From the NCBI GenBank assembly GCA_029959295.1, contig JASCOH010000003.1, positions 186,001-250,000 on the forward strand: a stretch of DNA of 64,000 bases, written 5' to 3'. Shown piece after piece: positions 489 through 16,993 of this stretch (its first letter is position 1; each line of letters opens with the position of its first letter). The position numbers and the translations under genes were made by a program. A model generated the notes under the pieces. The model was not told the DNA's origin. It searched no databases and was given only the letters and a program-made list of their open reading frames with translations. Source of the stretch: Flavobacteriaceae bacterium PS02334 (GTDB lineage: Bacteria; Bacteroidota; Bacteroidia; Flavobacteriales; Flavobacteriaceae).

Positions 489-526
489 AATATTATTTGA
501 GGTTTCTAAATCTACAATCAAAGTCA

Positions 527-669
527 TAGCCCCGATTGAAGCGGAAATCCTTTCATTAAAAAAATCTATTTTTTCTTGGCGTGAAAGAGCGACCGGAGTA
601 AGCTCCTTTCACGCCTTAGAAAAAAAGTTTTTTTGATGAAAGATTGCAGAGAAAAGCGGGAAAAGCTCC
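527..669 (+). repeat. Structured intergenic repeat, copy 1 (TAGCCCCGAT ... AGCGGGAA type)
   Basis: The element starts with TAGCCCCGAT (527-536) and ends with AGCGGGAAAAGCTCC (655-669). It folds as nested inverted repeats. The outer arms are CTTTCATTAAAAAAA (550-564) and TTTTTTTGATGAAAG (628-642), with one mismatch. The inner arms are a perfect 10-bp pair, GGCGTGAAAG (578-587) and CTTTCACGCC (606-615). The same end sequences, in the same order around a different GC-rich hairpin, recur at 28451-28532 on the opposite strand. It does not code for protein. Confidence 0.65.
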
Positions 670-2888: not shown

Positions 2889-2973
2889 CGATTTGCTTAA
2901 AAATTAATAAAGCTCACGACGAAAAGCTAACCGAAAAGAAATTGTGAAAACAACATTTTTTCCAAAGGATTTG

Positions 2974-3042
2974 GCTTATCGTTTTAGCACCTTGCTTGTT
3001 GTTGCAGGTTGCTATCTCTTTTATGAGATTCGTGATAACAAA
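2974..3042 (-). promoter_or_regulatory. SAM-riboswitch-like leader of the NhaC-family gene
   Basis: Read on the minus strand, a closing helix TTATC (3038-3034) pairs with GATAA (2980-2976). Inside it is a short hairpin (ATCTC/GAGAT), then AGCAACCTGC, an 8-base loop and GCAAGGTGCTAA. The AGCAACCTGC...GCAAGGTGCTAA core is the hallmark of the SAM-I/SAM-IV family (P3 and the joining strand). The 5' hairpin is far shorter than the usual SAM-I P2, so this may be a variant aptamer. The TSS predicted from 3045-3052 falls at its 5' end. A CCAAA/TTTGG hairpin follows and could be part of the expression platform. Confidence 0.65.
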
Positions 3043-3044
3043 TG

Positions 3045-3135: not shown

Positions 3136-3178
3136 AAAAAAACACGACTCTGTTAAATTATCAGCAGAGTCGTTTTAA
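3136..3178 (-). terminator. Rho-independent terminator of the Ter operon (after TerC)
   Basis: A perfect 9-bp stem, ACGACTCTG (3144-3152) with CAGAGTCGT (3165-3173), is followed on the minus strand by eight T residues after GTG. It lies 18 bases past the TerC stop codon and separates the Ter locus from the NhaC transcript. Confidence 0.85.
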
Positions 3179-3195
3179 AATTTATGTAAAAAATA

Positions 3196-4206
3196 TTATT
3201 TTGTCTCTTCTACTTCTTCTTTATCAGGAAATAACATTGACAAAACTACAGAAAGCACTAAAATACCTCCAATTACAATCAATGAATAAATTGAATCAAT
3301 ATGGTAAAATGGAGCAATAATCATCTTAACTCCAATGAAAGCAAGGATAATTGCCAGACCATATTTCAATTTGCTGAACAAGTGGATGAAGTTATCTAAC
3401 AAGAAAAATAAAGCTCTTAGACCTAAAATCGCAAAGATATTTGAAGTGTAAAGAATAAATGGATCATTTGAAATTGCAAAAATCGCTGGAATTGAATCTA
3501 CTGCAAAAAGCAAATCGGTGAACTCAATTACAGCCACAACAACCAATAAAGGCGTTGCTAATTTCTTTCCGTTTTCGATCGTAAAGAATTTATCGCCGTC
3601 ATAATTTTCGCTTACTTTGAAGAATCTTTTTACCAATCTTGCACCGCGCGTGTCGCTGAAATCCTCGTCTTCATCTTCATCTCCGGCTGACCAAGATTTG
3701 ATTCCTGCATAAACCAAGAACAATCCGAAAAGCGTCATGATAATGTTGATATCATACTTAAATCCTTCGATTCCGGCTAATCCTAGAAGCTTGTTCAAGT
3801 ACGTCAATTCAATTAAAAATGCGCCTGAAAAGATAAAAATCGCTCTTAAAACCAAAGCTCCGATGATTCCCCAAAACAATACTTTGTGTTTGCTAGAATT
3901 GGCTACATCAAAGAATTTGAAGACTAAAATGAATACGAATAAGTTATCTACAGAAAGTGCTTTTTCAATCCAATAAGCCGATTGGAATTCGTAAAACTTT
4001 GTTGGGCCGATAAAATAATAGACAAATCCACTGAAAATCATCGACAAGCTTATCCAAACAACTGACCAAGTAATCGCTTCTTTGTTAGAAACAACATGGC
4101 TGTTTTTGTTGAAAACTCCTAAATCCAAGAGTAACATAACAATGATTACAACCGCAAACGTCGCGATTAATCCGGGATGATTGATTAAAGTATCTACTTT
4201 TTCCAT
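3196..4206 (-). CDS. terC: TerC family integral membrane protein
   Basis: This is a 336-residue protein with seven to nine hydrophobic segments and the TerC/Alx signatures: ALSVDNLFVF (83-92), FTDLLFAVDSIPA (229-241) and SNIFAILGLRALFFLL (255-270). The acidic residues in these helices are the conserved, presumably metal-binding, positions. A charged cytoplasmic loop carries a run of Asp/Glu at about 176-182. TerC proteins act in metal (Mn) homeostasis or as the membrane hub of tellurite and stress resistance complexes. It is the last gene of the Ter locus, 30 bases after the kinase, and is followed by a strong terminator. The Alx/YkoY branch cannot be separated from TerC by eye, but the context favours TerC. 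Confidence 0.9.
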   Translation of the reverse strand: MEKVDTLINHPGLIATFAVVIIVMLLLDLGVFNKNSHVVSNKEAITWSVVWISLSMIFSGFVYYFIGPTKFYEFQSAYWIEKALSVDNLFVFILVFKFFDVANSSKHKVLFWGIIGALVLRAIFIFSGAFLIELTYLNKLLGLAGIEGFKYDINIIMTLFGLFLVYAGIKSWSAGDEDEDEDFSDTRGARLVKRFFKVSENYDGDKFFTIENGKKLATPLLVVVAVIEFTDLLFAVDSIPAIFAISNDPFILYTSNIFAILGLRALFFLLDNFIHLFSKLKYGLAIILAFIGVKMIIAPFYHIDSIYSLIVIGGILVLSVVLSMLFPDKEEVEETK

Positions 4207-4236
4207 TATTTATAAAAAATTAAAATTGATTACTGA

Positions 4237-5754
4237 TTATTCTTTTTGGTTTGTAATTGTAAAAAGCGCCACTCTTCCGCCTTCTTCTGCTGAAAGCAAT
4301 ATTTTTTTACCGTTTGTAATTTCTGTTTTACCGTTTATGGGAACTTCAATTCCTTCCGTAAGGTCTTTTACAGACTTGCCATTTTGGTTGACAAAGAACC
4401 ATTTATTTTCTTCAAATACAAAATTTCCGACAGGGATTTTTTCCATTTCCGTAAGTCTTTCATTATTGATTACATTTTTATTCGAATGCCACGAATGAAG
4501 CGTCTGATTTTCAAAAATCATCAGCCTGTGATTTTCTGGTTTCCAGACTGAAGGCTGAAATTGATAATAAAAATCCGCCATCGGAAGTGACTTTTGATAA
4601 TAGGTGCCGCAAAAAGGACATTTTGGTTCTGGCGTATTGTCAAATACATAAAATTGCTGGTCACAACTTTTGTTGCTACAAGGAATTGTCAAATCTATGG
4701 TTTTCAAAAGTGCTTGTTCCCAAACTTCAGCCACAGGACGTGACATCGGATGATGCAAACCTGAAATAAAAGCTTCGTCAAAAAGCTTTTTCAAATGCGG
4801 TCCCGTAATGGAATAAGGCATTTTTGAAATATCAGCCCAAGGCAAATCCCACTTTGATACTTGATTTAATTTTGGACGGTTCGAAAAATCTTCCGGATGT
4901 TCTATAAATAATGCTTTTTCTCCCATCGAAAGCAAATCGTCAATCTCCGTTTCTAAATTGTGAACTTTTCCACCTTTCAATGGATGTCTGTGAAGCAAAA
5001 ACATATAAATCAAAACGGGCAAAGCATGTAAATCGGTAAGTCGGTTTGGCAATTTTCGATTGGCATCATTTTTATTCAAATGCTTTGTAGACAAGACTTC
5101 AGGAGCAATAAATTCAGCAGTTCCAATAACATCAGCCGGATAAAGTCCTGGAACGACCAATCCGTCCAAGTCAATGATTACGGCAGATTTTTCAATCGGG
5201 TCGATCAAAACATTATTATAAGACAAATCAGAATGTGCCAATCCCATCGCGTGCATTTTTTTCACGCCTCGGGTAATGTTCACGCAGATTTTCAAATAAT
5301 CAAGCCAATTTCCCAATTCAGATTTTGCCAAACGAAGCGGAAACATCGTATTTCTAAACTTGGCTCCGGCAAACCATTTTCCATTTTTTTCTTTGCCCTG
5401 GATCAATTCGCCTGACTCCTGCCCTTTTTTGAAAAAAAATTTCTCTTTATAAATCGGAACAATAATTCCAGTCAAGCCGTTATGCTCAATTATATCTTCT
5501 GGCCAGCGGAAAACTTCATTCAAGAAATAATCAGAAGCTTCCTTATTTTTAATTTGTGGAAGATAATAATTCGTGATTTTCAGCAAGCGCTGTTTTTGAC
5601 TTTCGTCTAATTTATCCCTGTAAATCGCTACGACATATTTTCGGTCAGGACTGAAATAAACGTCTTTCAATCCGCCTTTCATCGGCTCGCCGTTGTCAAT
5701 AAATTGGTAGGATTTATAGCGGTCATTAACCGACCAAACCGTTATTGTTTTCAT
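4237..5754 (-). CDS. Protein kinase of the TerY-P triad, with zinc ribbon and FHA-like tail
   Basis: A Ser/Thr-type kinase fold spans about residues 30-350. The catalytic loop reads HSDLSYNN (174-181), so D176 and N181 are kept but the usual HRD arginine is Ser. The DFG motif is DLDG (195-198), and GTAEFIAPE (211-219) is the APE segment. The usual VAIK position reads VAIY, so ATP anchoring may differ. A four-Cys zinc ribbon follows (C359, C364, C379, C382). The last ~90 residues look like a beta-rich FHA-type module, although this is inferred from pattern only. Kinases of this type occur with TerY vWA and PP2C proteins in Ter systems. It starts 9 bases after the phosphatase stop, so the two are surely co-transcribed. 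Confidence 0.85.
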   Translation of the reverse strand: MKTITVWSVNDRYKSYQFIDNGEPMKGGLKDVYFSPDRKYVVAIYRDKLDESQKQRLLKITNYYLPQIKNKEASDYFLNEVFRWPEDIIEHNGLTGIIVPIYKEKFFFKKGQESGELIQGKEKNGKWFAGAKFRNTMFPLRLAKSELGNWLDYLKICVNITRGVKKMHAMGLAHSDLSYNNVLIDPIEKSAVIIDLDGLVVPGLYPADVIGTAEFIAPEVLSTKHLNKNDANRKLPNRLTDLHALPVLIYMFLLHRHPLKGGKVHNLETEIDDLLSMGEKALFIEHPEDFSNRPKLNQVSKWDLPWADISKMPYSITGPHLKKLFDEAFISGLHHPMSRPVAEVWEQALLKTIDLTIPCSNKSCDQQFYVFDNTPEPKCPFCGTYYQKSLPMADFYYQFQPSVWKPENHRLMIFENQTLHSWHSNKNVINNERLTEMEKIPVGNFVFEENKWFFVNQNGKSVKDLTEGIEVPINGKTEITNGKKILLSAEEGGRVALFTITNQKE

Positions 5755-5763
5755 CGGAAATTA

Positions 5764-7152
5764 TTAATAAATTATAGCTAAAGTTCTGTCGTCGTGGTTT
5801 CCTGGACTCCAGAAATTCATCCATTGCGAAAGTTGAGAAGCAGTTTCTTCGTTTCTATTTTCAAGATTTACGGCAAAATTATCGTCGTTTTTACCTTTTA
5901 AATCTTCTACAAAAGCATTCCACTTTTCAATTTTTTTTAGGTTGGCTTCCACTTCAAATTTTGGATCGTAAATTCCATCCGTCATCAAAAACAGAAAAGA
6001 AAAATCTTCGACAATTTCAAAATTAAAACGGGAATCAAAATTTTCATCTTCAAAAATTTCGGGCATTGTGATAAAACGTGTTCCGCCACCAAATTCTCCG
6101 ACATCGATTTTATTCATCAAATCAACTGAAGTTTGGTCTTTATTCACAACGCCAATCGGGCAATCGCCGACACCAAAAGTCAAAATTGCATATCCAAAAT
6201 CAAACTTTTTCAGAAGCGTAAAAATTAAAGTGGCGTGAAAATCTTTTAAACCATTTTCTGTTTTAGCAGCAAAATCTTGAATTTCTTGATGGGCAAATTT
6301 CGAAGCTTTTAGAAATTCATTCTTAATTTCGGCTAAAGTTTTCCCGTTATTTTTATACTCTAAAATCTCCTTATCAAAATTGGAAGCTGTATTTTCATCA
6401 AAATAATTCTGAAAAAAATCAGCAACCGCTTTACAAGCAATTTCAGCACCTTTTCTACCTAAAATAGCAGAACCGGCTCCGTCAGAAACAGCAATCAAGC
6501 TCCAATTATTTTCAGAAAAATGCTTGATTGTGTAATCATCATCGCGAAAACTTCCTTTATTGGCGTGAGAACGTCCTCTTTTTGAAGCAACTAAAACCGT
6601 TTTTTCTTCCAAAGAATAAATTTCAGCCACATCATCTTTTTTCCAATATAAATCTTCAGAATTGGAAGGAATATTTTTCCAAAGTGATTTCGGGTCAGGA
6701 TTGAAAATTATGGAAAGTGTTTTTTCGTAAAACTTATTTTCGTCGTCTTCATTTATCTTATAAAAAAGCGAAAATTTTAATTGTCCACTTTCGGTAGCAA
6801 TTCCTGAAATTTTATTTTCTTCGGAATTATATTCAAGTCCGAATTTTTCAAGTCCTTTGATGGAAATTGTATTCAAATCAGAAAGGTCAAGTTCATCAAA
6901 ATCTAAGGAAGCCGTGTATTCTTTCCCAACAGTTCCGTTTGGAAAAAATACCTGCTGGTTTTGAATATCCAACTTTCTGTTCATCAATTCCCAATCTTTT
7001 GCCATCTGTTTCTGAAGTTCTTGAATTAATTTGACCTTGTCTATATTTTCTTTTTTCGAAACAAATTCTTGAAAAGCTTGTTCGTTTTTGGGCGAAATCG
7101 CAACCGCTTTTAAAGCCAAAAGCTGTTGGATGTATTTTTCAGTTTCAGTCAT
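5764..7152 (-). CDS. PP2C-type protein phosphatase with N-terminal Ig-like domain
   Basis: The 462 residues hold a PP2C domain in the C-terminal ~270. RGRSHANKGSFRDDD (192-206) and AVSDGAGSA (221-229, metal-binding D224) open it, LMTDGIYD comes late, and the metal-site DD is at 454-455. The first ~45 residues are helical. Residues about 70-135 (VGKEYTASL ... GLEKFGLEYN ... KISGIATESGQLKFSLFY) follow the rhythm of a putative Ig/cadherin-like (He_PIG) domain, which is unusual in a protein with no signal peptide. The ATG overlaps the stop of the upstream vWA gene by one base. It should reverse the phosphorylation made by the adjacent kinase, as proposed for TerY-P triads. Confidence 0.85.
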   Translation of the reverse strand: MTETEKYIQQLLALKAVAISPKNEQAFQEFVSKKENIDKVKLIQELQKQMAKDWELMNRKLDIQNQQVFFPNGTVGKEYTASLDFDELDLSDLNTISIKGLEKFGLEYNSEENKISGIATESGQLKFSLFYKINEDDENKFYEKTLSIIFNPDPKSLWKNIPSNSEDLYWKKDDVAEIYSLEEKTVLVASKRGRSHANKGSFRDDDYTIKHFSENNWSLIAVSDGAGSAILGRKGAEIACKAVADFFQNYFDENTASNFDKEILEYKNNGKTLAEIKNEFLKASKFAHQEIQDFAAKTENGLKDFHATLIFTLLKKFDFGYAILTFGVGDCPIGVVNKDQTSVDLMNKIDVGEFGGGTRFITMPEIFEDENFDSRFNFEIVEDFSFLFLMTDGIYDPKFEVEANLKKIEKWNAFVEDLKGKNDDNFAVNLENRNEETASQLSQWMNFWSPGNHDDRTLAIIY

Positions 7153-8204
7153 TAGCCTTGCGTCCTGTTGACATCAAAACCGCCTCCACCTGTTCCATAT
7201 TCTCCCGTATTTCCGCACCACGGACAAGTGTTTTTTGCCTCAAAACCCACACAGTGAATTTTTCCGCAAGTACAAACAGCCAACCCATATTGATTTCCAC
7301 AGCAAGGACAAGCCGGAGCTCCAAGAAGTTCCTCGCTATTGACGTGGCTTTGGCTATTGGAATCATCGCCCAAATCAAAATAAGAATTATCAACTGGAAA
7401 AGCGCCAACCAAATTATACGATTTTGAATTCAAATCAACTCCTGCATAAATCGAGGACGAAAAAGTCCTTCGGTATTTCATCAGATAAGGTCGTTTTGTA
7501 TTTTGGCATTTCGCTGCTAAAACAGCAAAATTATCATCAACAACTGGTTTTGGCGGTTCGTTTTTGGTCAGATCAATTTTTGAAATGGTGTCGCCGTCAA
7601 TTTTCGCCAATTCAAATCCGTTAGCATTATTTTCAACACTGACACTGCTGGTTTTTATTGAATCTGTAACCCATCTGAAAAAATCTTTATACGATTGTGG
7701 CGTAGTATTTTTGAAGAGCAAAACGGTATCCGTCAGTTCGCCTAAAATTCTTGTATCGGCTTCATCTCCGAAGGAAATGGCAATCATATTTGCGGTACGT
7801 TGCCAGTTTTGTTTCCATTCGGCAATCGCTGATTTTGTATCATCGGTTGGAACTCCGTCTGTAAAAAGAAAGACAATCGGTTTCCAATCGCCTTTTTGTT
7901 CATACGTAGTTTTTACAATATTTTGGCGCAATTCATACATCAAATGACCGAGACCTTTGCTCAAAGAAGTACCGCTTCCGATTGGAAATTTCGGCGGATA
8001 AAAACTCACCAATTCCTGCAATGGAACCAATGTTTTAGGCTGTCCGGCAAAAACAATAATGGAAACCCAAACTGTTTCTAAAGCATAAGGATCGGTTTTT
8101 AAAGCCTGAATAATAGTGGAAAGTCCTTCTTCAACTTGCTGAATCGGCTCGCCAACCATTGATTCTGAAACGTCTATCAAAAAATATATCGGAAGTCTTC
8201 TCAT
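7152..8204 (-). CDS. TerY-type vWA protein with C-terminal TerY-C zinc ribbon
   Basis: The N-terminal 200 residues form a vWA domain with a complete MIDAS: D11-x-S13-x-S15, T79 in GSGTS and D116 in FTDG. The C-terminal 55 residues contain eight Cys (C299, C301, C302, C311, C313, C318, C327, C330), a double zinc ribbon as in the TerY-C domain. The tail GTGGGGF is flexible. The protein is cytoplasmic. In Ter systems such proteins are scaffold or sensor partners of the kinase and phosphatase encoded next. It overlaps the genes on both sides by one base (TAATG-type junctions), so the triad is translationally coupled. Its N-terminus is clearly paralogous to the next TerY gene (both begin MRRLP). 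Confidence 0.88.
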   Translation of the reverse strand: MRRLPIYFLIDVSESMVGEPIQQVEEGLSTIIQALKTDPYALETVWVSIIVFAGQPKTLVPLQELVSFYPPKFPIGSGTSLSKGLGHLMYELRQNIVKTTYEQKGDWKPIVFLFTDGVPTDDTKSAIAEWKQNWQRTANMIAISFGDEADTRILGELTDTVLLFKNTTPQSYKDFFRWVTDSIKTSSVSVENNANGFELAKIDGDTISKIDLTKNEPPKPVVDDNFAVLAAKCQNTKRPYLMKYRRTFSSSIYAGVDLNSKSYNLVGAFPVDNSYFDLGDDSNSQSHVNSEELLGAPACPCCGNQYGLAVCTCGKIHCVGFEAKNTCPWCGNTGEYGTGGGGFDVNRTQG

Positions 8205-8839
8205 TATATTACGATTGTTATTTCGTCTGGTGGCGGTGGCAATGAAACGCTTTCTCCTGTTCCCTGACTTTTATTTCCTTGTTCGATTGTTTCTGAAACC
8301 CATTTGAAAAAAGTTTTCAATGTCTGGCTGTCGGCGGCATCGAGATGAACGACATTATCTGTTAATTCCTTCAGCATCATGTCATTAGCCAAATGACCTG
8401 CTGCACAACCTACTACGGCTCCAAAATTCAAAGCTTTAATTTCAGGAACTTTTTCTCTATACAATTGAATATCAGAAGGTTTTCCGTCGGTAATTAAAAA
8501 CAATAATGGTTTCCAATCACCTTTTTGTGTTTCTGAGCCTTTGATTACGTCTTGTTTTACTTTTTGAATTACAAAATCCAAACCAGCTCCGGTATTTGTC
8601 GGGCCACTTTGAGGACACGTAATTTCTGGAAGTTGAAAGGTTACCAATTCTGTCAAAGGCACAATTTCCCTTACTTCTCTATCAAAAGTGATGATGCTGA
8701 TCCATAAGGAATCCAAGGCTTGCGGGTCTGAACGCAATGTGCTGATCATCCCACTCAAAGCATTATTTAATGCCTGAATAGGTTCGCCATACATTGACCC
8801 AGAAGTGTCCAATAAAAAATATACTGGGAGCCTTCTCAT
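8204..8839 (-). CDS. terY: TerY-type vWA domain protein
   Basis: This is a single vWA domain of 211 residues with the MIDAS set D11, S13, S15 (DTSGS), T81 or T83 (SGPTNTGAG) and D118 (ITDG), followed by a short Ser/Pro tail. Length and motifs match TerY. It is the one-domain paralogue of the following TerY-C protein: they share MRRLP, the QKGDWKP stretch before the ITDG/FTDG strand, and the spacing of all motifs. The two vWA proteins probably form a pair on which kinase and phosphatase act. The start abuts the upstream 134-aa gene (8840) with no gap. Confidence 0.9.
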   Translation of the reverse strand: MRRLPVYFLLDTSGSMYGEPIQALNNALSGMISTLRSDPQALDSLWISIITFDREVREIVPLTELVTFQLPEITCPQSGPTNTGAGLDFVIQKVKQDVIKGSETQKGDWKPLLFLITDGKPSDIQLYREKVPEIKALNFGAVVGCAAGHLANDMMLKELTDNVVHLDAADSQTLKTFFKWVSETIEQGNKSQGTGESVSLPPPPDEITIVI

Positions 8840-9244
8840 TTATCTTGGAATGTTATAAGTTGGATTTTCATCGCTTTGATTTGCCGAATACATCGCATTT
8901 ATGTTATAAGTCGAAGTATCTGCATCAGGATCATTTTGAATCAAATCGCTCAAAACAGCTTGCGTAACATCTTTTCCTCCAGATAATTGATGGTACATCG
9001 AACCAATCGTATAAATCGGTCCCCACGGAAATCCCCACCATCCAAACAAGGCATTTACGCCGACGTGCTTATAAGAATATTTAAATTTTCCTTCATAAGG
9101 TCTAATAAAATAGATAGAAGACGCTCTTTTCAAAGTCATAACTACAAAAGAAACTGTATATGGAAAATATACAAATTCTGCTCCTTGGCTTACAAGCTCT
9201 TTAATTTGAGCTACACTTAAACCTTCAATATTTTTGATCTGCAT
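8840..9244 (-). CDS. 134-residue Ter-locus protein with GWWGFPWG motif, unknown function
   Basis: This small protein has no recognised family. A predicted helix (4-22) is followed by alternating hydrophobic strands, KYSYKHVG, and a striking aromatic motif GWWGFPWGP (68-76) with YTIGSMYHQL after it. The C-terminal 40 residues are polar and repeat Asn/Tyr words (TYNI twice). The Trp/Gly/Pro motif resembles membrane-interfacial hairpins seen in uncharacterised proteins carrying GWWGxPWG, so it may touch the membrane. It lies between TerZ and TerY with gaps of 6 and 0 bases, which makes it a bona fide component of the Ter operon. Confidence 0.7.
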   Translation of the reverse strand: MQIKNIEGLSVAQIKELVSQGAEFVYFPYTVSFVVMTLKRASSIYFIRPYEGKFKYSYKHVGVNALFGWWGFPWGPIYTIGSMYHQLSGGKDVTQAVLSDLIQNDPDADTSTYNINAMYSANQSDENPTYNIPR

Positions 9245-9250
9245 CTTTGA

Positions 9251-9910
9251 TTAAAGATACGATTTTACAATCTTGTGAATAGTTTGGCCTAAGAAAGTAT
9301 CGTCAGTTGGATCTCCAATTGCGCTGAATTTCCACTCGTCATTTCTCTTGTATAATTTTGCCATAATAATTGACTGTTTTCCAGCATATTGCTGTTCAGC
9401 AGATACATTATACGAAGCAAAAACAGAATTCACTCGCGTTGGAGTTCCTTCATACATTCTGATTTTTGCATACGGAATTTGAGAAAAATCTTCTCTTCCT
9501 GCATTATTTAAAAAGAAGAAAATTTGAGAAACATTTGGATTGATTCTAGAAAGATCTACCGTAATAATTTCATTATCAATTCCGTCATCGCCACCTTTAT
9601 CTCCTTCTAAATCATCTCCTGTGTGTTTCATCGCGTTATCAGAAGTCAGCAATTTCCCTTTTGGAAGTCCAAATTGATTCAAAATCTCTACCTTATATAA
9701 AGGAGAATACAAATGATCACAAATTGAATTATTGTTATCGATAAGAACGCAACTTAAGTCAAGGTCAATGTTTTGGACGTTTTTAGTCAATCCGAAAAAG
9801 CCTTTAGTTTCAATTGCACCCCAGTTTACACCGATGCAAAAGTTTGTCAATTTGTCTCCGTTATCTTTTCGAAGATCAATTTTTTGTCCTTTAGTAAGGT
9901 TAATTGCCAT
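9251..9910 (-). CDS. terZ: TerZ-like TerD-family Ca-binding stress protein (copy 2)
   Basis: The 219 residues start with MAINLTKGQKIDL, as all four TerD-family members here do. The conserved core is present: GVNWGAIETKGFFG (27-40), DLDLSCVL (49-56), HTGDDLEGD (96-104), and the acidic GGDDGIDNE (106-114) that forms a Ca site in TerD proteins. An insertion at about 66-90 (HLYSPLYKVEILNQ) replaces the short FRKLKS loop found in the other TerZ copy. YEGTPTRVNSVFA and YKRNDEWKFSAIG are shared with that copy, marking a TerZ pair. It is cytoplasmic. It follows the second TerD gene, repeating the TerD-TerZ order seen upstream in the operon. Confidence 0.88.
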   Translation of the reverse strand: MAINLTKGQKIDLRKDNGDKLTNFCIGVNWGAIETKGFFGLTKNVQNIDLDLSCVLIDNNNSICDHLYSPLYKVEILNQFGLPKGKLLTSDNAMKHTGDDLEGDKGGDDGIDNEIITVDLSRINPNVSQIFFFLNNAGREDFSQIPYAKIRMYEGTPTRVNSVFASYNVSAEQQYAGKQSIIMAKLYKRNDEWKFSAIGDPTDDTFLGQTIHKIVKSYL

Positions 9911-9939
9911 AATGATTTGTTTTTGGTTGGTTAATTTGA

Positions 9940-10491
9940 TTAGTTGTATTTTGTCAAGAAATCTTGCAAACCGCCTTTCATTCCTGAACCTACAGCTTCA
10001 AATTTCCATTCATTATTTCTTTTGTAAATTCTTCCGAATTCAACGGCGGTTTCAATTGAGAAATCTTCGTCTAATTCATATTTTACCAATTCTGTGTTTG
10101 AACTATCGATAATTCTAATGAAAGAATTTCTTATTTGCCCAAAATTTTGTCTTCTTGTATCCGCTTGGTGAATCGTCACGACGAAACAAATTTCTACCGC
10201 ATCAGCTGAAATTTTTGATAAATCAACCGTAATTTGTTCGTCATCGCCATCACCAGCTCCAGTTAAATTATCTCCGGTGTGAATTACAGAATCATCTGGC
10301 GATTTTGTATTGTTGTAATACACAAAATGATTGTCGCTCAAGATTTTTCCGTTTGCTCCAACGATAAAAACAGAAGCATCTAAATCAAATGCTTCGCCAG
10401 TGGCGCTAGAATTGCTATCCCAACCTAAACCAACTGTAAATTTTGGTGCGTCAATTGCCTGACGTTGTCCTTTTTCTAAATTAATTGCCAT
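9940..10491 (-). CDS. terD: TerD family Ca-binding stress protein (copy 2)
   Basis: This 183-residue protein carries every TerD hallmark: KFTVGLGWD (17-25), FDLDASVF (35-42), HTGDNLTGAGDGDDE (71-85) for calcium binding, NFGQIRNSFIRI, and a C-terminal GRIYKRNNEWKFEAVG. It is very close (roughly three quarters identical by eye) to the TerD at 13206-13760. TerD proteins bind Ca and are thought to act at the membrane with TerC in resistance to tellurite, phage or other stress. Its start overlaps the stop of the unknown upstream gene by one base, so translation is coupled. Confidence 0.92.
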   Translation of the reverse strand: MAINLEKGQRQAIDAPKFTVGLGWDSNSSATGEAFDLDASVFIVGANGKILSDNHFVYYNNTKSPDDSVIHTGDNLTGAGDGDDEQITVDLSKISADAVEICFVVTIHQADTRRQNFGQIRNSFIRIIDSSNTELVKYELDEDFSIETAVEFGRIYKRNNEWKFEAVGSGMKGGLQDFLTKYN

Positions 10492-11468
10492 TATTTTGAA
10501 TTAATATTTATGTTTAACATTGCTTTTAAAATATTGGTCTGTTCGTCCACATTTTGTAAATCATTCAAGAATTCAACGTCTGAAATTTTTTCGGCATAAC
10601 TTTGTAAAACAGCTTCTACATCTTTTGAAATCTGTGTTTTCAAATTTAATTGCTGTTCTTTCAGCTTGTTATTTTTTTCTTGTAAATCTTCTATAATTTG
10701 TGTCTTTACAGACTTATTTTTTGATAAATCGATTCCTCTGATATTTTCGTTATTTAAAAAATATAAAGATTTTTCATTGACATTGAAAATAAATTTATCG
10801 TTAGAATCTATGAATTCATACACTTCTGCGATTTCATTTTGGCACTTAATTCCACAAGCAAATTTTATTCTAAACCTATGAATATTAAGCCTTCCCAATA
10901 ATTTTCGTTCCACTTTTACAAATTGATTTGAATAAATCGGATCATCATCATGATGGTTTATTTGTTCAAATTTTTCGTTGTTTATTTCTCTGTAGAATTC
11001 GGAACATCTCCTTGATGAAAACTCCGTAATTTCATTCCAATGAAAATTTATTTTTTCATCAAAAGCGAAAATCTTGTACAACTCTTCAATTTTCAAAGAA
11101 AGATTTTTAGCGTGACTGAAAGCTACATCGGAAAAGACGCCAGTATCAATTTCAAGCTTTAATTTCCTGATAAAGTCGTCATTAATATAAATTTCATCCG
11201 ATAGCAAAAGATAGCTTTGCTCCTTTGCTTTCTTCAATTTTTGGAACAATTCAATAAGCGTTTTCGTGTATTGAATGTGAAATAAATCAAGCTTGTTTAT
11301 GTCAAGATTTTTATTGTTTTCAAAAAGATTATGGATGACTTTTGTGCGTATCAAAACCGCAATGAGAACTGGATGATTAAAAAAATTACCTAAAATTTTT
11401 AATGTCTGAAGCTTCTTTTTGCTGTCATTGATTATCTGATTGAACATTTCATCATCTTCCTGATGCAT
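10491..11468 (-). CDS. 325-residue unknown protein of the Ter operon
   Basis: No family is recognised. The protein is soluble and mostly helical. The N-terminal ~130 residues are Lys/Glu/Leu-rich helices, the middle (about 180-245) is more beta-like (KVERKLLGRLNIHRFRIKF, then FACGIKC with two Cys three residues apart), and the last 70 residues form a coiled coil (EKNNKLKEQQLNLK). It starts 18 bases after TelA ends and overlaps the next TerD gene by one base, so it belongs to the operon. TelA is also a long helical protein, and a partner role with it is possible but not shown. AT content matches its neighbours. Confidence 0.7.
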   Translation of the reverse strand: MHQEDDEMFNQIINDSKKKLQTLKILGNFFNHPVLIAVLIRTKVIHNLFENNKNLDINKLDLFHIQYTKTLIELFQKLKKAKEQSYLLLSDEIYINDDFIRKLKLEIDTGVFSDVAFSHAKNLSLKIEELYKIFAFDEKINFHWNEITEFSSRRCSEFYREINNEKFEQINHHDDDPIYSNQFVKVERKLLGRLNIHRFRIKFACGIKCQNEIAEVYEFIDSNDKFIFNVNEKSLYFLNNENIRGIDLSKNKSVKTQIIEDLQEKNNKLKEQQLNLKTQISKDVEAVLQSYAEKISDVEFLNDLQNVDEQTNILKAMLNININSK

Positions 11469-11486
11469 CTAAATTTCTCCTTCTCC

Positions 11487-12575
11487 TTAATTTATAACTC
11501 CTTTTTTCAATTCTGCTTCCAAACTTTGAAGTCCGGCATCCAACTGTCTTCTTGTTTCGGTACCTTGCTCGTGAATTTGCTTCACTTCTGTCAAAGTATC
11601 GATTAGCGACTTTGTTGTCATTTTCAAAGTTTCCAATGAAACGATTGTGTTTTCGTTTTCTTTAGCCACTTCAATACTATTCATTTTCAGCATTTCAGCA
11701 TTTTTCTGCAAGATGGTATTCGTTGTTTCCGAAACTCTTCTTTGCACTTCGATATTTTGTTTTTGTCTTTGCAAAGCAACCGCCAACGTCAATTGATTTT
11801 TCCAAACTGGCATTGTTGTTGTTAAGATTGACTGTGCTTTTTCAGCTATTGAAGTGTTATTATTTTGAACTACACGAATTTGTGCTAAAGATTGCAACAT
11901 AATAAAACGCACAATTTTCATATCAGCAAGACGTTTGTCCAATCTGTTGATGAAAGTTCTCTTGTCAGAAATCTGGTAATCTTGATAATTTGCTGGATTT
12001 GCTTCCATCACCGCCAATTCTTCATTCAGTTCTTTAAAACGGATTTGTCCAGCGATAATGTGCTTTTCCATTTCTTTAATAAGGTTCACATTTCCTTCAA
12101 ACATCGTTTGCAAAGAAGCGTTATCTTTCACTGAATTGATCATTCCGGCCTTCACTTTATTGCTGATTTTATCTACGTTTACCGTGATTTTATCATACTG
12201 TTGGAACAATTTTTTCACATCAGTTACTAATTTTCCAAGAAGTGGAATTTTAGACAAAAAACGTTTCGCCGGACTTTGGTTCAATTGGTCAACATCAACA
12301 TAATTTAATTCCGTCAACAGGTCGTTGATTAATGTTCCAACTTCACCAGAATTGTAGGTTCTGACATTTGTCAAAAATACATCACTCTGTTTTGCAATTG
12401 AATTCTGAATTTCAGCTCCAAAATTCAAGATTGAATTCGAATCATTCTCATTCAATTGTGTTGAAAGTGATTTATAATTACTTAAATCTGATTCTGTTGC
12501 ATTAGCCAAATTCACATTTCCGTCCTTATCAATCAAACCGTTTTGCTCTTGAACAATCACTTGGTTATTTTCCAT
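11487..12575 (-). CDS. telA: TelA-family toxic anion resistance protein
   Basis: This is a 362-residue, soluble, almost wholly helical protein of the TelA/KlaA family. Typical signatures are LNYVDVDQL and FLSKIPLLGKLV (helix-break region, about 106-118), and the conserved TTMPVWKNQLTLAV block near 254-267, followed by long heptad helices to the end. The length agrees with the family. Members are linked to tellurite and other toxic-anion tolerance and often sit in Ter loci, but their chemistry is unknown. The N-terminal ~60 residues are polar and Asn-rich. It is tightly packed between TerZ (12 bases upstream) and the 325-aa unknown (18 bases downstream). Confidence 0.9.
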   Translation of the reverse strand: MENNQVIVQEQNGLIDKDGNVNLANATESDLSNYKSLSTQLNENDSNSILNFGAEIQNSIAKQSDVFLTNVRTYNSGEVGTLINDLLTELNYVDVDQLNQSPAKRFLSKIPLLGKLVTDVKKLFQQYDKITVNVDKISNKVKAGMINSVKDNASLQTMFEGNVNLIKEMEKHIIAGQIRFKELNEELAVMEANPANYQDYQISDKRTFINRLDKRLADMKIVRFIMLQSLAQIRVVQNNNTSIAEKAQSILTTTMPVWKNQLTLAVALQRQKQNIEVQRRVSETTNTILQKNAEMLKMNSIEVAKENENTIVSLETLKMTTKSLIDTLTEVKQIHEQGTETRRQLDAGLQSLEAELKKGVIN

Positions 12576-12587
12576 TTTCTATTTTAT

Positions 12588-13199
12588 TTATAGATGATTT
12601 TGTTGAATTGTCACAACCGTTTCTTCTAATTTTCTATCTTTAGTTGGAGCTCCAACAGCGCTGAATTTCCATTCTCCGTTTCTTTTATAGAAAACCCCCA
12701 AAACCATCGAAACATTTCCTGCGAAATTCTTATCATTGGCAATATCATACTTTGCAAAAACTTCGTTTACACGAGTTGGAGTTCCTTCATAAATTCGAAT
12801 TGAAGCAAACGGAATGTCTTTAAAATCCTGACCTCTAAAGCTATTGATAAAGAAAGCCACGTGACTTGCATTAGGATTCAATTGACCCAAATCTAAAGTA
12901 ATTACCTCATTATCAAGTCCGTCATCGCCATTTAAATCTCCAGTCAAATCATCGCCACTATGTTTGATAGCGCCATCATTTGATTTCAACTTGCGGAAAC
13001 TTACCGTGTCAATATTGTTTTTATTTTCGTCGTAAACAGCACAACTTGCATCCAAATCTACAGGTTCTTTAGTTACGCCTCCGAAAAAACCTTTTTTCTC
13101 GATTGCACCCCAATTAATTCCCACACAGATGTTTTGAAGTTTTGAACCATTGCTCTTTTCAAGATTGATTCTTTGTCCTTTTTCTAAATTAATTGCCAT
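12588..13199 (-). CDS. terZ: TerZ-like TerD-family Ca-binding stress protein (copy 1)
   Basis: The 203 residues show GINWGAIEKKGFFGG (27-41), VDLDASCAVYD (47-57), FRKLKSNDGAIKHSGDDLTGD (68-88) and the acidic NGDDGLDNE (90-98). FRKL...SGDDLTGD and the later NSFRGQDF match TerZ rather than TerD. The C-terminus (YKRNGEWKFSAVG) is the conserved TerD-fold strand. It is predicted to be cytoplasmic and to bind Ca. With the TerD gene 6 bases upstream it forms the first of two TerD-TerZ pairs in this operon. The other pair lies after TelA and the unknown 325-aa gene. Confidence 0.9.
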   Translation of the reverse strand: MAINLEKGQRINLEKSNGSKLQNICVGINWGAIEKKGFFGGVTKEPVDLDASCAVYDENKNNIDTVSFRKLKSNDGAIKHSGDDLTGDLNGDDGLDNEVITLDLGQLNPNASHVAFFINSFRGQDFKDIPFASIRIYEGTPTRVNEVFAKYDIANDKNFAGNVSMVLGVFYKRNGEWKFSAVGAPTKDRKLEETVVTIQQNHL

Positions 13200-13205
13200 T
13201 TTTTA

Positions 13206-13760
13206 TTAATTGTATTTGTTTAAATAATCTTGCAAACCGCCTTTCATGCCTACTCCAACCGCTTCAAATTTCCACTCATTGTTTCTTTTGTAAATTCTTC
13301 CGAATTCTACAGCCGTTTCAATAGAGAAATCTTCTTCAAGCTCATATTTTACAAGCTCAGAATTATTTGAAGAATCTAAAATCCTAACGAATGAATTTCT
13401 AACTTGGCCAAAGTTTTGCTTTCTATCTTCAGCATCATGAATCGTTACCACAATACAGATTTCAGAAGTTCTTGGGTCAATTTTAGACAAATCCACTAAG
13501 ATCTGCTCATCGTCTCCATCGCCATCTCCTGTCAAGTTATCGCCTGTGTGTTCAACGGCTTCGTCTGGAGATTTCAAATTATTATAAAAAACAAAATGCT
13601 CGTCAGAAAGAATCTTTTTGTTCTCTCCCATGATAAAAACCGAAGCATCTAAATCGAATGAAGCTCCTGTGGAGGAAGCGTTTGTGTCCCAACCTAAACC
13701 AATTGTAAATTTAGGAGCATTTAAAGTTTCACGTTGTCCTTTTTGCAAGTTTATAGCCAT
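13206..13760 (-). CDS. terD: TerD family Ca-binding stress protein (copy 1)
   Basis: The 184 residues carry the complete TerD core: GLGWD (21-25), FDLDASVF (35-42), HTGDNLTGDGDGDDE (71-85) and NFGQVRNSFVRI. The start codon lies inside the end of the upstream phosphoribosyltransferase gene. The two frames overlap by 32 bases in different phases, so the first ten TerD codons also encode the last residues of the transferase. The MAINL start is fixed by the identical N-terminus of the other three family members. It is near-identical in layout to the 9940-10491 copy. Confidence 0.92.
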   Translation of the reverse strand: MAINLQKGQRETLNAPKFTIGLGWDTNASSTGASFDLDASVFIMGENKKILSDEHFVFYNNLKSPDEAVEHTGDNLTGDGDGDDEQILVDLSKIDPRTSEICIVVTIHDAEDRKQNFGQVRNSFVRILDSSNNSELVKYELEEDFSIETAVEFGRIYKRNNEWKFEAVGVGMKGGLQDYLNKYN

Positions 13761-14574
13761 AATCTGCTGTTTTTTTATTTATTGATTGTAAATTTTGTTT
13801 GTATTCTTCTATTGTATGATAATTATTGCTGACCGCTAAATCAAACAAAGTTTCAATTCTGTGTTGCGGAATCGACTGCAATAACAATATCAAATCGTTG
13901 ACATCAAGTCTCAAAATATATTTGACAATTCGTGTATTGTATTCAAAAGTACTTTGATTAATCAATGAGATAATATGACTTACATCCTTGACATAAAAGT
14001 AGTTAAAATGATTTTCAATATTTGGATGAATGTTTTTATTTAACAATTCAGCAAAATATACGAAGACAAAATGGCCTTGCACTTTATATTCGTCTAAAAT
14101 CTTTTTTACTATAAATTCGTGGCTTCCTGTAATTTTTATGTCATCCATAAAAATACAAAGTTTTCCGTCAACAATATTTTTATCGATATAATAAGTATCG
14201 TTTGAAATCATCTTCACTCTTTCGGCATAATCTAAAGCGCCATAATCAGCAACATAGGTCTGATTTCTATAGATTTTTGATTCTTTCAGTGCTTTTTTAT
14301 CATTCTCAAATAAGAATTTATTCATAAGCGTTTTGAAATAAAAACTCAAGCAATTAGAAGCCGTAGGAATTGCCAAATACGGACTTGGCAGAATTACGAT
14401 TTCTTCGTGTTGCAAGATTAAATCTGCGTGTTCACTGATAAATCCTTCGAATAATTGTTCTGCAAATTTTTTGGCAATGGCGTTATCACCAAACTTAAAT
14501 TTGCTGTAATCGGCTTCTGAGAACGGACAATTATCTTTATCAGTAACTTTATGTAAGCTGTAATTTGTATTCAT
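13729..14574 (-). CDS. Phosphoribosyltransferase-fold protein of the Ter locus
   Basis: The 281 residues include the PRPP-binding loop pattern at 142-153 (FMDDIKITGSHE), which corresponds to the hydrophobic-DD-x-x-x-TG(A/S)(T/H) motif of type I phosphoribosyltransferases. EEIVILPSPYLAIPTAS (57-73) supplies the earlier strand and turn. A conserved Tyr/Arg segment, YVADYGALDYAERV (107-120), lies before the PRPP loop. Proteins of this type are found next to HAD phosphatases in Ter systems and are proposed to make a nucleoside-like metabolite. The substrate is unknown. The last 32 bases overlap the TerD start. Only two Cys are present and there is no signal peptide, so it should be cytoplasmic. 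Confidence 0.8.
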   Translation of the reverse strand: MNTNYSLHKVTDKDNCPFSEADYSKFKFGDNAIAKKFAEQLFEGFISEHADLILQHEEIVILPSPYLAIPTASNCLSFYFKTLMNKFLFENDKKALKESKIYRNQTYVADYGALDYAERVKMISNDTYYIDKNIVDGKLCIFMDDIKITGSHEFIVKKILDEYKVQGHFVFVYFAELLNKNIHPNIENHFNYFYVKDVSHIISLINQSTFEYNTRIVKYILRLDVNDLILLLQSIPQHRIETLFDLAVSNNYHTIEEYKQNLQSINKKTADYGYKLAKRTT

Positions 14575-14582
14575 AAACTAAT

Positions 14583-15245
14583 TTAAACAATTAGATGGGC
14601 ATCAAATCCGAATTTTTTTGCACCATCATAATCTGAATTTCTGTTGTCACCAACGTGGATTATTTCGTTTTTTGCAATGTCACTGATTTTCACAATTTCA
14701 TCGTAAGTCAATTGATAAATTAGATTGTTCGGCTTTGAAACTCCGGCTTCATCAGAATAAATTTGGAACGAAAAAAAATCTTCCATTCCATAATGCGTCA
14801 TAATTTTCTTCAGCGTTCGTCCTTTGATAAAAGCCGTATTGCTTAAAATATTCATCGTCTTTCCTTCTTTGTAAAGATTTTCAAGCGTCTGAGGCAGTTT
14901 GTCGTCAAGCAATAATGGTTTGTGTTTCATCAACAAATCTTCGGTCAAATCATAAAAAGTGCTGAACTGCTCCATTTCGATTTTTTCGAGATCTACGGAT
15001 AACGCGTCTAAAATTAAGAAATATATTTCAAGAGTATCGAAGTTTTTTCCTACTCTTTCGTTAATATAATTGGTGAGGACGTCAAATTTTCGAATAACCG
15101 CATTTACTTCGTCCATAGGTTTCTCAATTTTAAAGAAGTCTTTGAACAAACGGTTTCTTTCCTGCTTAAATTCGGGATTGGATCTGATAAGTGTGAGCCA
15201 CAAATCAAATGAGATATGCTTATAATTGTAGAGTTTCTGTATCAA
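14583..15245 (-). CDS. HAD-superfamily hydrolase of the Ter locus
   Basis: The 220 residues show the HAD motifs: I, FDLWLTLI (13-20, nucleophile D14, with D/W/T spacing); II, LSNTAF; III, the Lys of SKPNN; IV, GDNRNSDYDGAKKFG (199-213). A helical cap lies between motifs I and II (about 25-120). Length and motif order agree with phosphatases of the C1-cap class. It is the first gene of the Ter operon and starts about 90 bases after the predicted promoter. With the downstream phosphoribosyltransferase it resembles the biosynthetic side-module of Ter systems, in which the phosphatase would trim a phosphorylated sugar or nucleotide product. Confidence 0.85.
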   Translation of the reverse strand: MIQKLYNYKHISFDLWLTLIRSNPEFKQERNRLFKDFFKIEKPMDEVNAVIRKFDVLTNYINERVGKNFDTLEIYFLILDALSVDLEKIEMEQFSTFYDLTEDLLMKHKPLLLDDKLPQTLENLYKEGKTMNILSNTAFIKGRTLKKIMTHYGMEDFFSFQIYSDEAGVSKPNNLIYQLTYDEIVKISDIAKNEIIHVGDNRNSDYDGAKKFGFDAHLIV

Positions 15246-15337
15246 TTCTTTTAATTTGCTAAAAATCGGCCTTGTAAATTACTTCGCTGACATTATTTAT
15301 AGCTTAAAGTTTAAGGCGTCGACAATAATTATAATTG

Positions 15338-15368
15338 TAAATATAAAATTTTAAATGAATTTTAGCAA
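15338..15368 (-). promoter_or_regulatory. Promoter of the 14-gene Ter operon
   Basis: On the minus strand TTG (15368-15366) is followed after 20 bases by TATATTTA (15345-15338). This fits the Bacteroidota pattern TTG-N(17-23)-TAnnTTTG with one mismatch in the last base. It is the only promoter-like site upstream of the HAD gene, and the gaps inside the operon are at most 30 bases. One long transcript is therefore likely. Confidence 0.5.
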
Positions 15369-15420
15369 TCTTGTTTAAAAAATTTAATAAATTAATAAAG
15401 GATGTAGTTTTTTGTTCAAA

Positions 15421-16299
15421 TTATTGCACTTCTGGCATAATCACATAACTATCATCTTCTGGAACTTTTGGAAATTCCTTCTTTCTCCAGCGTTCTTTGG
15501 CTACTTCTAATTTTTCATTGCTGGAAGAGACAAAATTCCAATAAATGTAACGCTCTTCCGGCAAAGGCTGACCACCAAAAAGGATAACGTGCGTATTTGG
15601 CATCAAGGTCATTGAACACGCATCTTCCAATTTTGAAACCAGCATATTTCCTTTTTCCACGTGATTTTCGCACGCTTGAATAGCGCCTTCGACTACGCAA
15701 ATTCCGATTTCTCCAAACAACTGACCTTCAGTATGCAAAAGATATTCATCTTCAGTTTTAATTTCAACCATAAACAAATCCGAATGAACCGGAACCGGCG
15801 ACTCTTTTCCATAACCTTTTCCTGCAACTAAAGTAAAATCAGTCGTTCCGTCCTTCCATCTTGGCAAATCATTTCGGTCAAAATGATGAAATTCTGGATT
15901 CATATCTTCTTTTTCTTTTGGCAAGGCAACCCAAATTTGGTAACCGTGCACGTCGTGAGTTGAACCATCTCGAAGCTCAACCGGAGTTCGTTCTGTATGC
16001 GTCACGCCGTTTCCTGCAATCATCCAATTCACAGAGCCTGGAGCGATTTTTTGTTCGGTTCCAAGGCTGTCTTTGTGCATAATTTCTCCTTCCAATAAAA
16101 AAGTCAAAGTTGCCAAACCAATATGCGGATGCTGGCCAACGTCCATATAATGTTCAGGTCCCATTTTTGCGGGTCCCATGTGGTCGATAAAAATAAACGG
16201 TCCGACCATTCTCTTCTTGCGAAACGGCAATAATCTTCCGACTAAAAAATCTCCGATATCGCGTGGTCTTTCTTCTATTATTAGGTCTATGTTTGACAT
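15421..16299 (-). CDS. Pirin family protein
   Basis: Started at ATG 16299 (MSNIDLIIEERPRDIG), the protein has 292 residues, the usual pirin length. A start at 16335 would add 12 residues not typical of the family. It is a bicupin. The N-terminal cupin holds FIFIDHMGP, HPHIGLATLTFLLEGEI and HTERTP, which contain the conserved metal-binding His and Glu positions. The C-terminal cupin is shorter and weaker. Pirins are iron-binding cytoplasmic proteins, some with quercetinase activity. The physiological substrate is not predictable. It lies downstream of the DNA glycosylase gene on the same strand. A decayed pirin fragment also occurs at 41552-41805. Confidence 0.88.
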   Translation of the reverse strand: MSNIDLIIEERPRDIGDFLVGRLLPFRKKRMVGPFIFIDHMGPAKMGPEHYMDVGQHPHIGLATLTFLLEGEIMHKDSLGTEQKIAPGSVNWMIAGNGVTHTERTPVELRDGSTHDVHGYQIWVALPKEKEDMNPEFHHFDRNDLPRWKDGTTDFTLVAGKGYGKESPVPVHSDLFMVEIKTEDEYLLHTEGQLFGEIGICVVEGAIQACENHVEKGNMLVSKLEDACSMTLMPNTHVILFGGQPLPEERYIYWNFVSSSNEKLEVAKERWRKKEFPKVPEDDSYVIMPEVQ

Positions 16300-16363
16300 T
16301 TTCTTGGGTTTAAGGTTTTGGGCAAAAGGTTTCAAGTGCTTTGCGAGCAGTCTAAATTACGAA

Positions 16364-16849
16364 TTATTTTAATGCTTCCATAATTGCTTCCCATTCCTCT
16401 AATTTTTGCAGAAAACTCTTGGAAGCGTTTGCTCCGCTTGGCGATGGAAGAATTGTATATTTTAAATCTGATTTTCTTCCAACATATTTATCGTAGTAAT
16501 TTGACGCATTTTTACTGGAGAAAAAGACGTGTTTTATATTTGGATATTTTTTATAGAAAGTTTTAAAATCATTAGGAACTTCATTTTTTATATTGCTGTC
16601 GAGGCTTCCAGTTCTTTCGCATAATTCTAAGACGTCCCAAAGAGCGATGTCATTTTCTAGTAACAACTGCTTTTTTTCAGCGAAAGTTTCTGGTAAAGGC
16701 TGGTCGAATAATGTGAAGAGTAATTTCCAGAAACTGTTTCCTTTGTTTCCATAATATTCTTGCAATTCCAAGGATTTTTCGCCTGGCATTGTCCCGAGGA
16801 TTAAGATTTTTGAATTTTCATTTACAAATGGTGGAAAAGCTTTTTTCAT
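16364..16849 (-). CDS. DNA-deoxyinosine/uracil glycosylase (UDG superfamily)
   Basis: The 161 residues have the UDG-superfamily motif 1 as LGTMPGEKSLELQEYYGNKGNSFW in sense (GTMPG at 19-23), and motif 2 as LPSPSGANA (134-142). This combination is typical of the hypoxanthine-DNA glycosylase (family 6 / MUG-like) branch, which removes deaminated bases as the first step of base excision repair. An Asn in motif 1 follows the family (KGNSFW). The next frame ends 29 bases before it on the same strand. The precise base preference (hypoxanthine or uracil) is inference. Confidence 0.82.
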   Translation of the reverse strand: MKKAFPPFVNENSKILILGTMPGEKSLELQEYYGNKGNSFWKLLFTLFDQPLPETFAEKKQLLLENDIALWDVLELCERTGSLDSNIKNEVPNDFKTFYKKYPNIKHVFFSSKNASNYYDKYVGRKSDLKYTILPSPSGANASKSFLQKLEEWEAIMEALK

Positions 16850-16934
16850 ATTTTAAAGATAAATATTCTGTTTTTCTAACACAAAGAAACGCAAAGGTTT
16901 TTCGCAGAGAGATTCACGAAGCCTTACTTTAAGA

Positions 16935-16970
16935 ACAAAAAAAAAGCCTCACAAAAAATTGCGAAGCTTT
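16935..16970 (-). terminator. Terminator of sucD
   Basis: On the minus strand AAGCTTCGCA pairs (with G-U pairs) with TGTGAGGCTT across a T-rich loop, followed by a run of nine T. It lies about 25 bases after the sucD stop. Confidence 0.75.
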
Positions 16971-16993
16971 CTATATTAATTCACAGGAAAAAA

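What the first reader, a model, noticed from the sequence alone, without database searches (positions are those of the whole stretch)
3136..15368. Fourteen-gene Ter locus with doubled TerD-TerZ pairs and two unrecognised subunits
One strand, with gaps of at most 30 bases and several overlaps, carries HAD, PRTase, TerD, TerZ, TelA, unknown-325, TerD, TerZ, unknown-134, TerY, TerY-C, PP2C, kinase and TerC. The TerY/PP2C/kinase triad and the link of Ter genes to PRTase/HAD genes are known from comparative genomics. The doubled TerD-TerZ pairs around TelA plus the 325-aa gene, and a PRTase/HAD-only biosynthetic arm (no ATP-grasp seen), are specific here. It could be a Ca- or metal-triggered phospho-signalling complex that makes a small nucleotide product.
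Basis: partly seen in the sequence, partly recalled or inferred. Interest (0 to 1): 0.78.

Follow-up and report, generated by a model that had tools for sequence, protein, structure and literature searches.

The report
Bacteroidota Ter operon with TelA partner
This is a real 14-gene bacterial stress-response (Ter) operon of a known kind, seen patchily across Bacteroidota, in which one of the two unrecognised proteins proves to be a conserved neighbour of TelA and the other an add-on to the phosphorylation module.

Summary
Fourteen consecutive minus-strand genes (3196-15245; largest gap 30 bp) encode HAD, PRTase_3, TerD, TerZ, TelA, U325, TerD, TerZ, U134, VWA (TerY), VWA+TerY_C, PP2C, kinase, TerC. 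A SAM riboswitch lies between TerC and the next gene.

It is a Bacteroidota form of the known Ter-dependent stress-response systems, made of two separable modules. Module 1: HAD-PRTase-TerD/TerZ-TelA-U325-TerC. U325 lies directly downstream of TelA in 77 of 80 loci and in 5 of 6 TelA-bearing genomes of a 295-genome class sample. Module 2: TerY-PP2C-kinase, in 37 of the 80 loci; U134 accompanies it in 21 of 37 and occurs in 0 of 43 loci without it.

U325 reaches no Pfam or NCBIfam cut-off; its model (pLDDT 86) is a long helical protein with a small beta domain. Mechanism stays inferred.

The parts
14583..15245 (-). HAD-family hydrolase; motif I is D-x-W instead of D-x-D
   Evidence: PF00702; D14 and W16 in 83 of 83 rows; also D-x-W in the 3 phage HADs looked at
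13729..14574 (-). PRTase_3 phosphoribosyltransferase
   Evidence: PF15610 5e-83; D144-D145 and T149-G150 in 83 of 83 rows
13206..13760 (-). TerD1 (TerD domain)
   Evidence: PF02342; tree position
12588..13199 (-). TerZ1 (TerD-domain paralog)
   Evidence: PF02342; tree
11487..12575 (-). TelA
   Evidence: PF05816 8e-93
10491..11468 (-). U325: conserved TelA-adjacent protein of no named family; helices 2-136, beta domain about 178-238, C-terminal helices 254-323
   Evidence: model
9940..10491 (-). TerD2 (TerD domain)
   Evidence: PF02342; tree
9251..9910 (-). TerZ2 (TerD-domain paralog, separate older clade from TerZ1)
   Evidence: PF02342; tree
8840..9244 (-). U134: add-on of the TerY module; core of about 100 aa shared with stand-alone copies plus a Ter-only tail ending YNIP[RV]
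8204..8839 (-). TerY1, VWA protein
   Evidence: PF00092; DxSxS motif in 72 of 72 rows
7152..8204 (-). VWA + TerY_C metal-binding domain
   Evidence: PF15616 9e-49; conserved cysteines in 38 rows
5764..7152 (-). PP2C phosphatase
   Evidence: PF13672
4237..5754 (-). Ser/Thr-type kinase with C-terminal Cys cluster; D176, N181, D195 conserved
   Evidence: PF00069
3196..4206 (-). TerC membrane protein
   Evidence: PF03741
2946..3043 (-). SAM-I/IV riboswitch between TerC and the NhaC-type gene: marks the 3' border, not part of the system
   Evidence: Rfam RF01725, 58.6 bits against 41.1

Best explanation
It is a Bacteroidota-type Ter stress-response operon. Shown: gene content, order, recurrence, modularity, conservation of catalytic residues. 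Inferred: the PRTase joins a base-like compound to PRPP and the HAD removes a phosphate or does a related step, giving a nucleoside-like ligand. TerD/TerZ proteins bind Ca or metal and/or that ligand. TelA and U325, two long cytoplasmic helical proteins, form a scaffold close to the membrane, with TerC as the metal-transporting membrane anchor. The TerY-PP2C-kinase module, a separate plug-in, sets the state of this assembly by reversible phosphorylation, and U134 tethers to that module through its C-terminal YNIP[RV] tail. The expected outcome is tolerance of envelope, oxyanion or phage stress. Confidence is about 0.95 that it is a Ter operon of this two-module build, 0.85 that U325 works with TelA, and 0.35 for the mechanism as a whole; the value below is for the whole statement.
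For: Families and order. U325 directly after TelA in 77 of 80 loci, with HAD, PRTase, TerD and TerZ also in 77 of 80. U325 and TelA coincide in the class sample, 5 of 5 and 5 of 6, 25-51 bp apart (hypergeometric 3e-10, not corrected for kinship). Pairwise distances correlate best for PRTase-HAD (0.97) and TelA-U325 (0.94), less for cross pairs (0.79-0.90). Module 2 sits on the same strand in 30 loci, convergent in 7 and absent in 43, and occurs without TelA/U325 in L115-L117, L127, L128. PRPP motif, PP2C metal residues, kinase D176/N181/D195 and VWA DxSxS are conserved. U134 tail: 23 of 23 Ter-linked copies, 0 of 7 stand-alone. U325 model is elongated and helical with no membrane segment. TerC as Mn exporter and metalation factor: PMC10550928, PMC12096827 (passages). 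Ter as signal synthesis + sensing + membrane response: PMC7824862 (passage).
Against: No phenotype, transcript or interaction data. HAD lacks the usual second Asp of motif I (D-x-W), so phosphatase activity is not assured. In 3 of 80 loci (L074, L080, L089, all Mucilaginibacter) U325 and a TerC gene stand without TelA nearby. G020 and G098 have TelA without U325, next to XpaC-like genes and no Ter genes. U134 is missing from 16 of 37 TerY-module loci. VIA-align shows no fold match above background. U325 is the fastest-evolving of four proteins compared (median identity 0.37), not typical of a catalytic core.
Confidence: 0.45

Rival explanations
1. An anti-phage defence system: the PRTase/HAD product is an alarm signal made on infection, and TerC/TelA/U325 are the effector at the membrane.
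For: TerY-P-like modules with an OB-fold kinase act as stand-alone antiphage systems, and TerY-P accompanies CoCoNuT restriction systems (PMC11090510, passages). Ter clusters are linked to phage inhibition (PMC7824862). Patchy distribution: TelA over cut-off in 4 of 60 relatives. Phages carry the HAD-PRTase pair (48 of 48 records shown in both lists), as expected if they answer or borrow the signal.
Against: No PADLOC model matched except weak kinase-only hits (10 of the 14 proteins scanned, U325 and U134 not among them). No nuclease or toxin-like gene in the operon. It lies among ordinary chromosomal genes, not an evident defence island (first 20 kb looked at).
Confidence: 0.25
2. A metal-homeostasis operon centred on TerC: Mn export and metalation of exported enzymes, with the rest as its regulatory apparatus.
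For: TerC proteins of B. subtilis export Mn and metalate exoenzymes with the Sec translocon (PMC10550928, PMC12096827, passages). TerC or a divergent TerC-family gene follows U325 or the kinase in most of the loci printed.
Against: In L115 the place after the kinase holds a PrsW-family protease with a GYF-like start, not TerC. Does not explain the PRTase/HAD arm.
Confidence: 0.2
3. Dedicated tellurite/oxyanion resistance.
For: Family names, and tellurite phenotypes of enterobacterial ter clusters (PMC9933665, passages).
Against: The paper itself places ter in general envelope-stress tolerance; the gene set (PRTase/HAD, TerY-P) exceeds the minimal resistance cluster.
Confidence: 0.08

Closest known systems
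Ter-dependent stress-response systems (Anantharaman, Iyer and Aravind 2012; not held; known here by recall and by citation in PMC7824862, PMC11090510, PMC9933665)
   Same: TerD-domain proteins, TerC, TelA, PRTase/HAD arm, TerY-P triad
   Different: U325 between TelA and TerD2, and U134 with its tail; whether that paper lists them could not be checked
Pedobacter xixiisoli locus L060
   Same: Identical order of all 14 genes, 48-87% identity per protein
   Different: Another family (Sphingobacteriaceae); no functional difference visible
Flavobacterium loci such as L035, L041, L049
   Same: Same 14 families in the same order
   Different: Extra TerD upstream of HAD and an extra VWA gene; small unnamed genes before TerY_C in L035 and L126
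TelA-XpaC pairs (PF05816 with PF10112-like neighbours)
   Same: A helical partner gene immediately beside TelA (L118, L119)
   Different: No Ter genes nearby; the partner is not related to U325 by profile comparison (hhalign probability 0.2%). PF10112 matches of the L119 partners are themselves below cut-off (E 0.005, 0.025)
TerY-P triads of CoCoNuT systems (PMC11090510, passages)
   Same: VWA + PP2C + kinase with a zinc-ribbon-like Cys cluster
   Different: No McrBC/CoCoNuT genes in this operon
Phage HAD-PRTase(-macrodomain) units, e.g. L139-L141
   Same: HAD directly before PRTase_3, both recognisably related (about 28-32% identity), D-x-W motif
   Different: No U325 in phages; macrodomain gene after PRTase in L141, and a phrog_335 'phosphatase' in L140 (L141's macrodomain protein is also phrog_335)

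Membership tests
Ter-dependent stress-response system | TerD-domain protein(s) | tested here: met
   Four PF02342 proteins above cut-off
Ter-dependent stress-response system | TerC membrane protein and/or TelA | tested here: met
   PF03741 and PF05816 above cut-off
Ter-dependent stress-response system | PRTase/HAD biosynthetic arm | tested here: met
   PF15610 and PF00702
Ter-dependent stress-response system | Function: stress-inducible tolerance | not testable with these tools
   No phenotype data
TerY-P triad | VWA (TerY) + PP2C + kinase in one operon | tested here: met
TerY-P triad | Kinase with C-terminal zinc ribbon | tested here: inconclusive
   C359, C364, C379, C382 conserved in 37 rows; no zinc-ribbon model scored
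ATP-grasp-containing Ter biosynthetic arm | ATPgrasp_Ter gene in the locus | tested here: not met
   Only a sub-threshold match on another contig of this genome; the model also rings in 13 of 14 control genomes, so it is unspecific
XpaC (PF10112), for U325 | Profile similarity | tested here: not met
   hhalign probability 0.2% against 3 XpaC-like proteins; PF10112 not among the 25 families shown of 31 at E up to 0.5
F-BAR fold, for U325 | Shared fold | tested here: inconclusive
Canonical HAD phosphatase | D-x-D motif I | tested here: not met
   D-x-W in 83 of 83 rows; D-x-W also in PDB 2om6
Known anti-phage systems (PADLOC 2023) | Match of operon proteins to system models | tested here: inconclusive
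   10 of 14 proteins scanned; only weak kinase matches

The most novel reading that the evidence does not exclude
U325 founds a new family of TelA partner that replaces XpaC in Bacteroidota and builds with TelA a BAR-like scaffold at the membrane. The scaffold is gated by the nucleoside-like product of a D-x-W HAD/PRTase pair, and large phages carry the same pair to imitate, flood or consume that signal.
Probability: 0.12. Interest if true: 0.8.

Novelty: new variant of a known kind. Interest (0 to 1): 0.42.

Why it matters
Ter systems have been known for decades without a mechanism. A conserved TelA neighbour present in 77 of 80 loci gives a concrete partner to pull down. The single-copy loci of Chryseobacterium (7 genes) give a minimal version to delete or reconstitute. 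The HAD-PRTase pair shared with phages that grow on laboratory E. coli K-12 gives a way to find the proposed metabolite. Annotating U325 and U134 would name two gene families that Pfam and NCBIfam lack.

Tried and rejected
Rejected: passengers by chance for U325 and U134. Rejected: duplication of a TerD-TerZ cassette. Rejected: U325 as XpaC. Rejected: NhaC gene as part of the operon (riboswitch). Weak Pfam matches of U325 members (FlgN in 7 of 28, best 4e-4; RhoGAP in 4) were taken as coiled-coil noise; no solved structure matched U325 or TelA by sequence below E 0.05.

Led nowhere: promoter and terminator scans; an empty insertion site, since the nearest NhaC and pirin relatives do not lie side by side in the relatives; viral contigs, plasmids and phages for U325; phages and plasmids for U134. 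A fold of U134 and the Foldseek pdb and viral searches for U325 never ran. VIA-align listed no clear relative of U325.

P values ignore kinship. Tree: the tool warned that long branches meet between the TerZ and TerD groups; nesting inside the TerD1/TerD2 clade is weakly supported (forks 86/0 and 93/78); the second TerZ clade has 88/85. By position, TerZ after U325 in Chryseobacterium, G040 and L062 falls in the TerZ1 clade. The key 2012 paper was not held, so nothing is claimed about what is absent from print (searches).
Full report
Observation. The 14 genes are present as described. Gaps are at most 30 bp, with 4 overlaps and one abutment among 13 junctions. The operon is bounded by 175 bp to pirin and by 307 bp with a SAM-I/IV riboswitch to an NhaC-type gene. 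The window lies in a 4.59-Mb genome in 69 contigs. The genome has six TerD-domain genes, four here and two in an unrelated cluster on contig C66.

Recurrence. An alignment of three U325 proteins found 233 relatives in GTDB genomes, the best 80 of which were kept: Flavobacterium, Chryseobacterium, Mucilaginibacter, Chitinophaga, Pedobacter, Edaphocola, Desertivirga and several MAGs. In 77 of 80, TelA is directly upstream on the same strand, and HAD, PRTase, TerD and TerZ are each present in 77. The exceptions L074, L080 and L089 (Mucilaginibacter) keep U325 and a TerC-family gene without TelA nearby. The commonest patterns are HAD-PRTase-TerD-TelA-U325-TerZ-TerC (25 loci) and the long form with TerY module and an extra TerD and VWA gene (17 loci). 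Exactly the window's order is found once, in Pedobacter xixiisoli.

Unbiased samples. Among 295 genomes of the class (own genome included), full-length U325 is in 5 and TelA over cut-off in 6; all 5 U325 genes lie 25-51 bp from a TelA match. A sixth U325 match (G192) is a 66-residue fragment at E 9e-4 and was not counted; three genomes with TelA matches below cut-off were not counted. In 60 nearer relatives, U325 is strong in 3 (plus one weak fragment, G002) and TelA over cut-off in 4. In 395 genomes of the phylum U325 is full-length in 15 (plus one weak fragment, G443), all of the same class or closer. TelA without U325 (G020, G098) sits beside XpaC-like genes and has no Ter genes nearby.

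Two modules. Of the 12 genomes with PRTase_3 over cut-off, 5 have the TelA-U325 form, 3 (G315, G231, G169) have HAD-PRTase-TerD with the TerY module and no TelA or U325, 1 (G079) has HAD-PRTase alone, and 3 have PRTase without these neighbours. TerY_C is in 8 of 295; G060 and G288 have TerD plus the TerY module without PRTase in the stretch fetched, and G237 was not fetched. Among the 80 loci the TerY module is on the same strand in 30, convergent in 7, absent in 43. The kinase, phosphatase and VWA residues expected for activity are conserved.

The paralogs. A tree of 93 TerD-domain proteins groups them mostly by position. The TerD2 copies form one clade (10 rows, 100/99) within the TerD1+TerD2 clade (34 rows, 100/98). 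TerZ2 copies form a clade with the TerZ found upstream of HAD elsewhere (11 rows, 100/99), apart from the TerZ1 clade (21 rows, 88/85). So the two TerD-TerZ pairs did not arise by copying one pair. The window's TerD1 is nearest to Pedobacter's (100/89), which suggests transfer between families.

U134. It occurs in 21 of 37 TerY-module loci and in none of the 43 others, either before the VWA gene or between VWA and TerY_C. In 7 relatives it stands alone. Ter-linked copies in the fetched loci end in YNIP[RV], 23 of 23 (two of them, L041 and L126, from one organism); stand-alone copies do not, 0 of 7. None of 16 members matches Pfam above background. I read the tail as a docking peptide; this is inference.

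The enzyme pair. The HAD keeps the nucleophile D14 and motifs II-IV but has W at the place of the second Asp, in 83 of 83 rows, in the three phage HADs and G079's, and in PDB 2om6. The PRTase keeps the PRPP motif. Both occur in phages: PRTase in 154 and HAD in 71 of 50,697 records. In all 48 records that appear in both 60-row lists, HAD lies just upstream of PRTase on the same strand; these are 41 distinct coordinate sets and mostly close relatives, so the number of independent cases is small. A phrog_335 gene, called macrodomain in one record and phosphatase in the other, follows in L141 and L140. TelA matches 101 phage records, and one annotated as tellurite resistance lies about 4 kb from the pair in L140. 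PMC7824862 (passage) had already described PRTase/HAD Ter modules in jumbo phages.

Mechanism. The best reading is a stress system with a signal-making pair, metal- or ligand-binding TerD proteins, a TelA-U325 scaffold, TerC in the membrane, and a phosphorylation switch as an optional module. The parts list and conservation are shown; every functional step is inferred from family knowledge and passages in the papers named.

Novelty. The system is a member of a known kind. U325 as the constant TelA neighbour and the tailed U134 are, as far as Pfam, NCBIfam, PHROGs and the papers searched go, unnamed. The decisive 2012 paper could not be read, so priority is open.

Noticed in passing
window 2946-3043 (-) and 1566-2888 (-): SAM-I/IV riboswitch 57 bp upstream of an NhaC-type transporter gene, which suggests a methionine-related transporter (inference).
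   Followed up: partly
window 524-667 (+): Flavo-1 RNA (Rfam RF01705, 59.2 bits), function unknown.
   Followed up: no
L007 (G000:C66:245000-264900), 9771-19885: Two more TerD-domain genes in a cluster with a tubulin-like protein (weak PF00091/PF13809), a 1289-aa protein with an actin/Hsp70-like ATPase motif (by eye), and an OmpA-like protein: a different TerD system.
   Followed up: partly
L139, L140, L141: HAD-PRTase_3 pair in large phages, among them phages of laboratory E. coli K-12, near anaerobic ribonucleotide reductase genes in L140 and L141.
   Followed up: partly
L074, L080, L089: Mucilaginibacter loci where U325 and a TerC-family gene stand without TelA in the fetched stretch; where the rest of the system lies was not traced.
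   Followed up: no
L035:14482-14733, L030:12937-13203, L115:8629-8895, L117:10158-10427, L128:10356-10613: A small (83-89 aa) conserved hydrophobic gene before TerY_C, with a sub-threshold YGGT match in L035; absent in the window.
   Followed up: no
L115:13398-14432, L030:17893-18948: A PrsW-family protease with a weak GYF-like start (L115) after the kinase, where TerC lies in other loci; a similar start is seen in L030.
   Followed up: no
phage records MG065639, MG065645, MG065656, MG065689: Records named Campylobacter phages have the length and gene positions of E. coli Justusliebigvirus-like phages; possible mislabelling.
   Followed up: no
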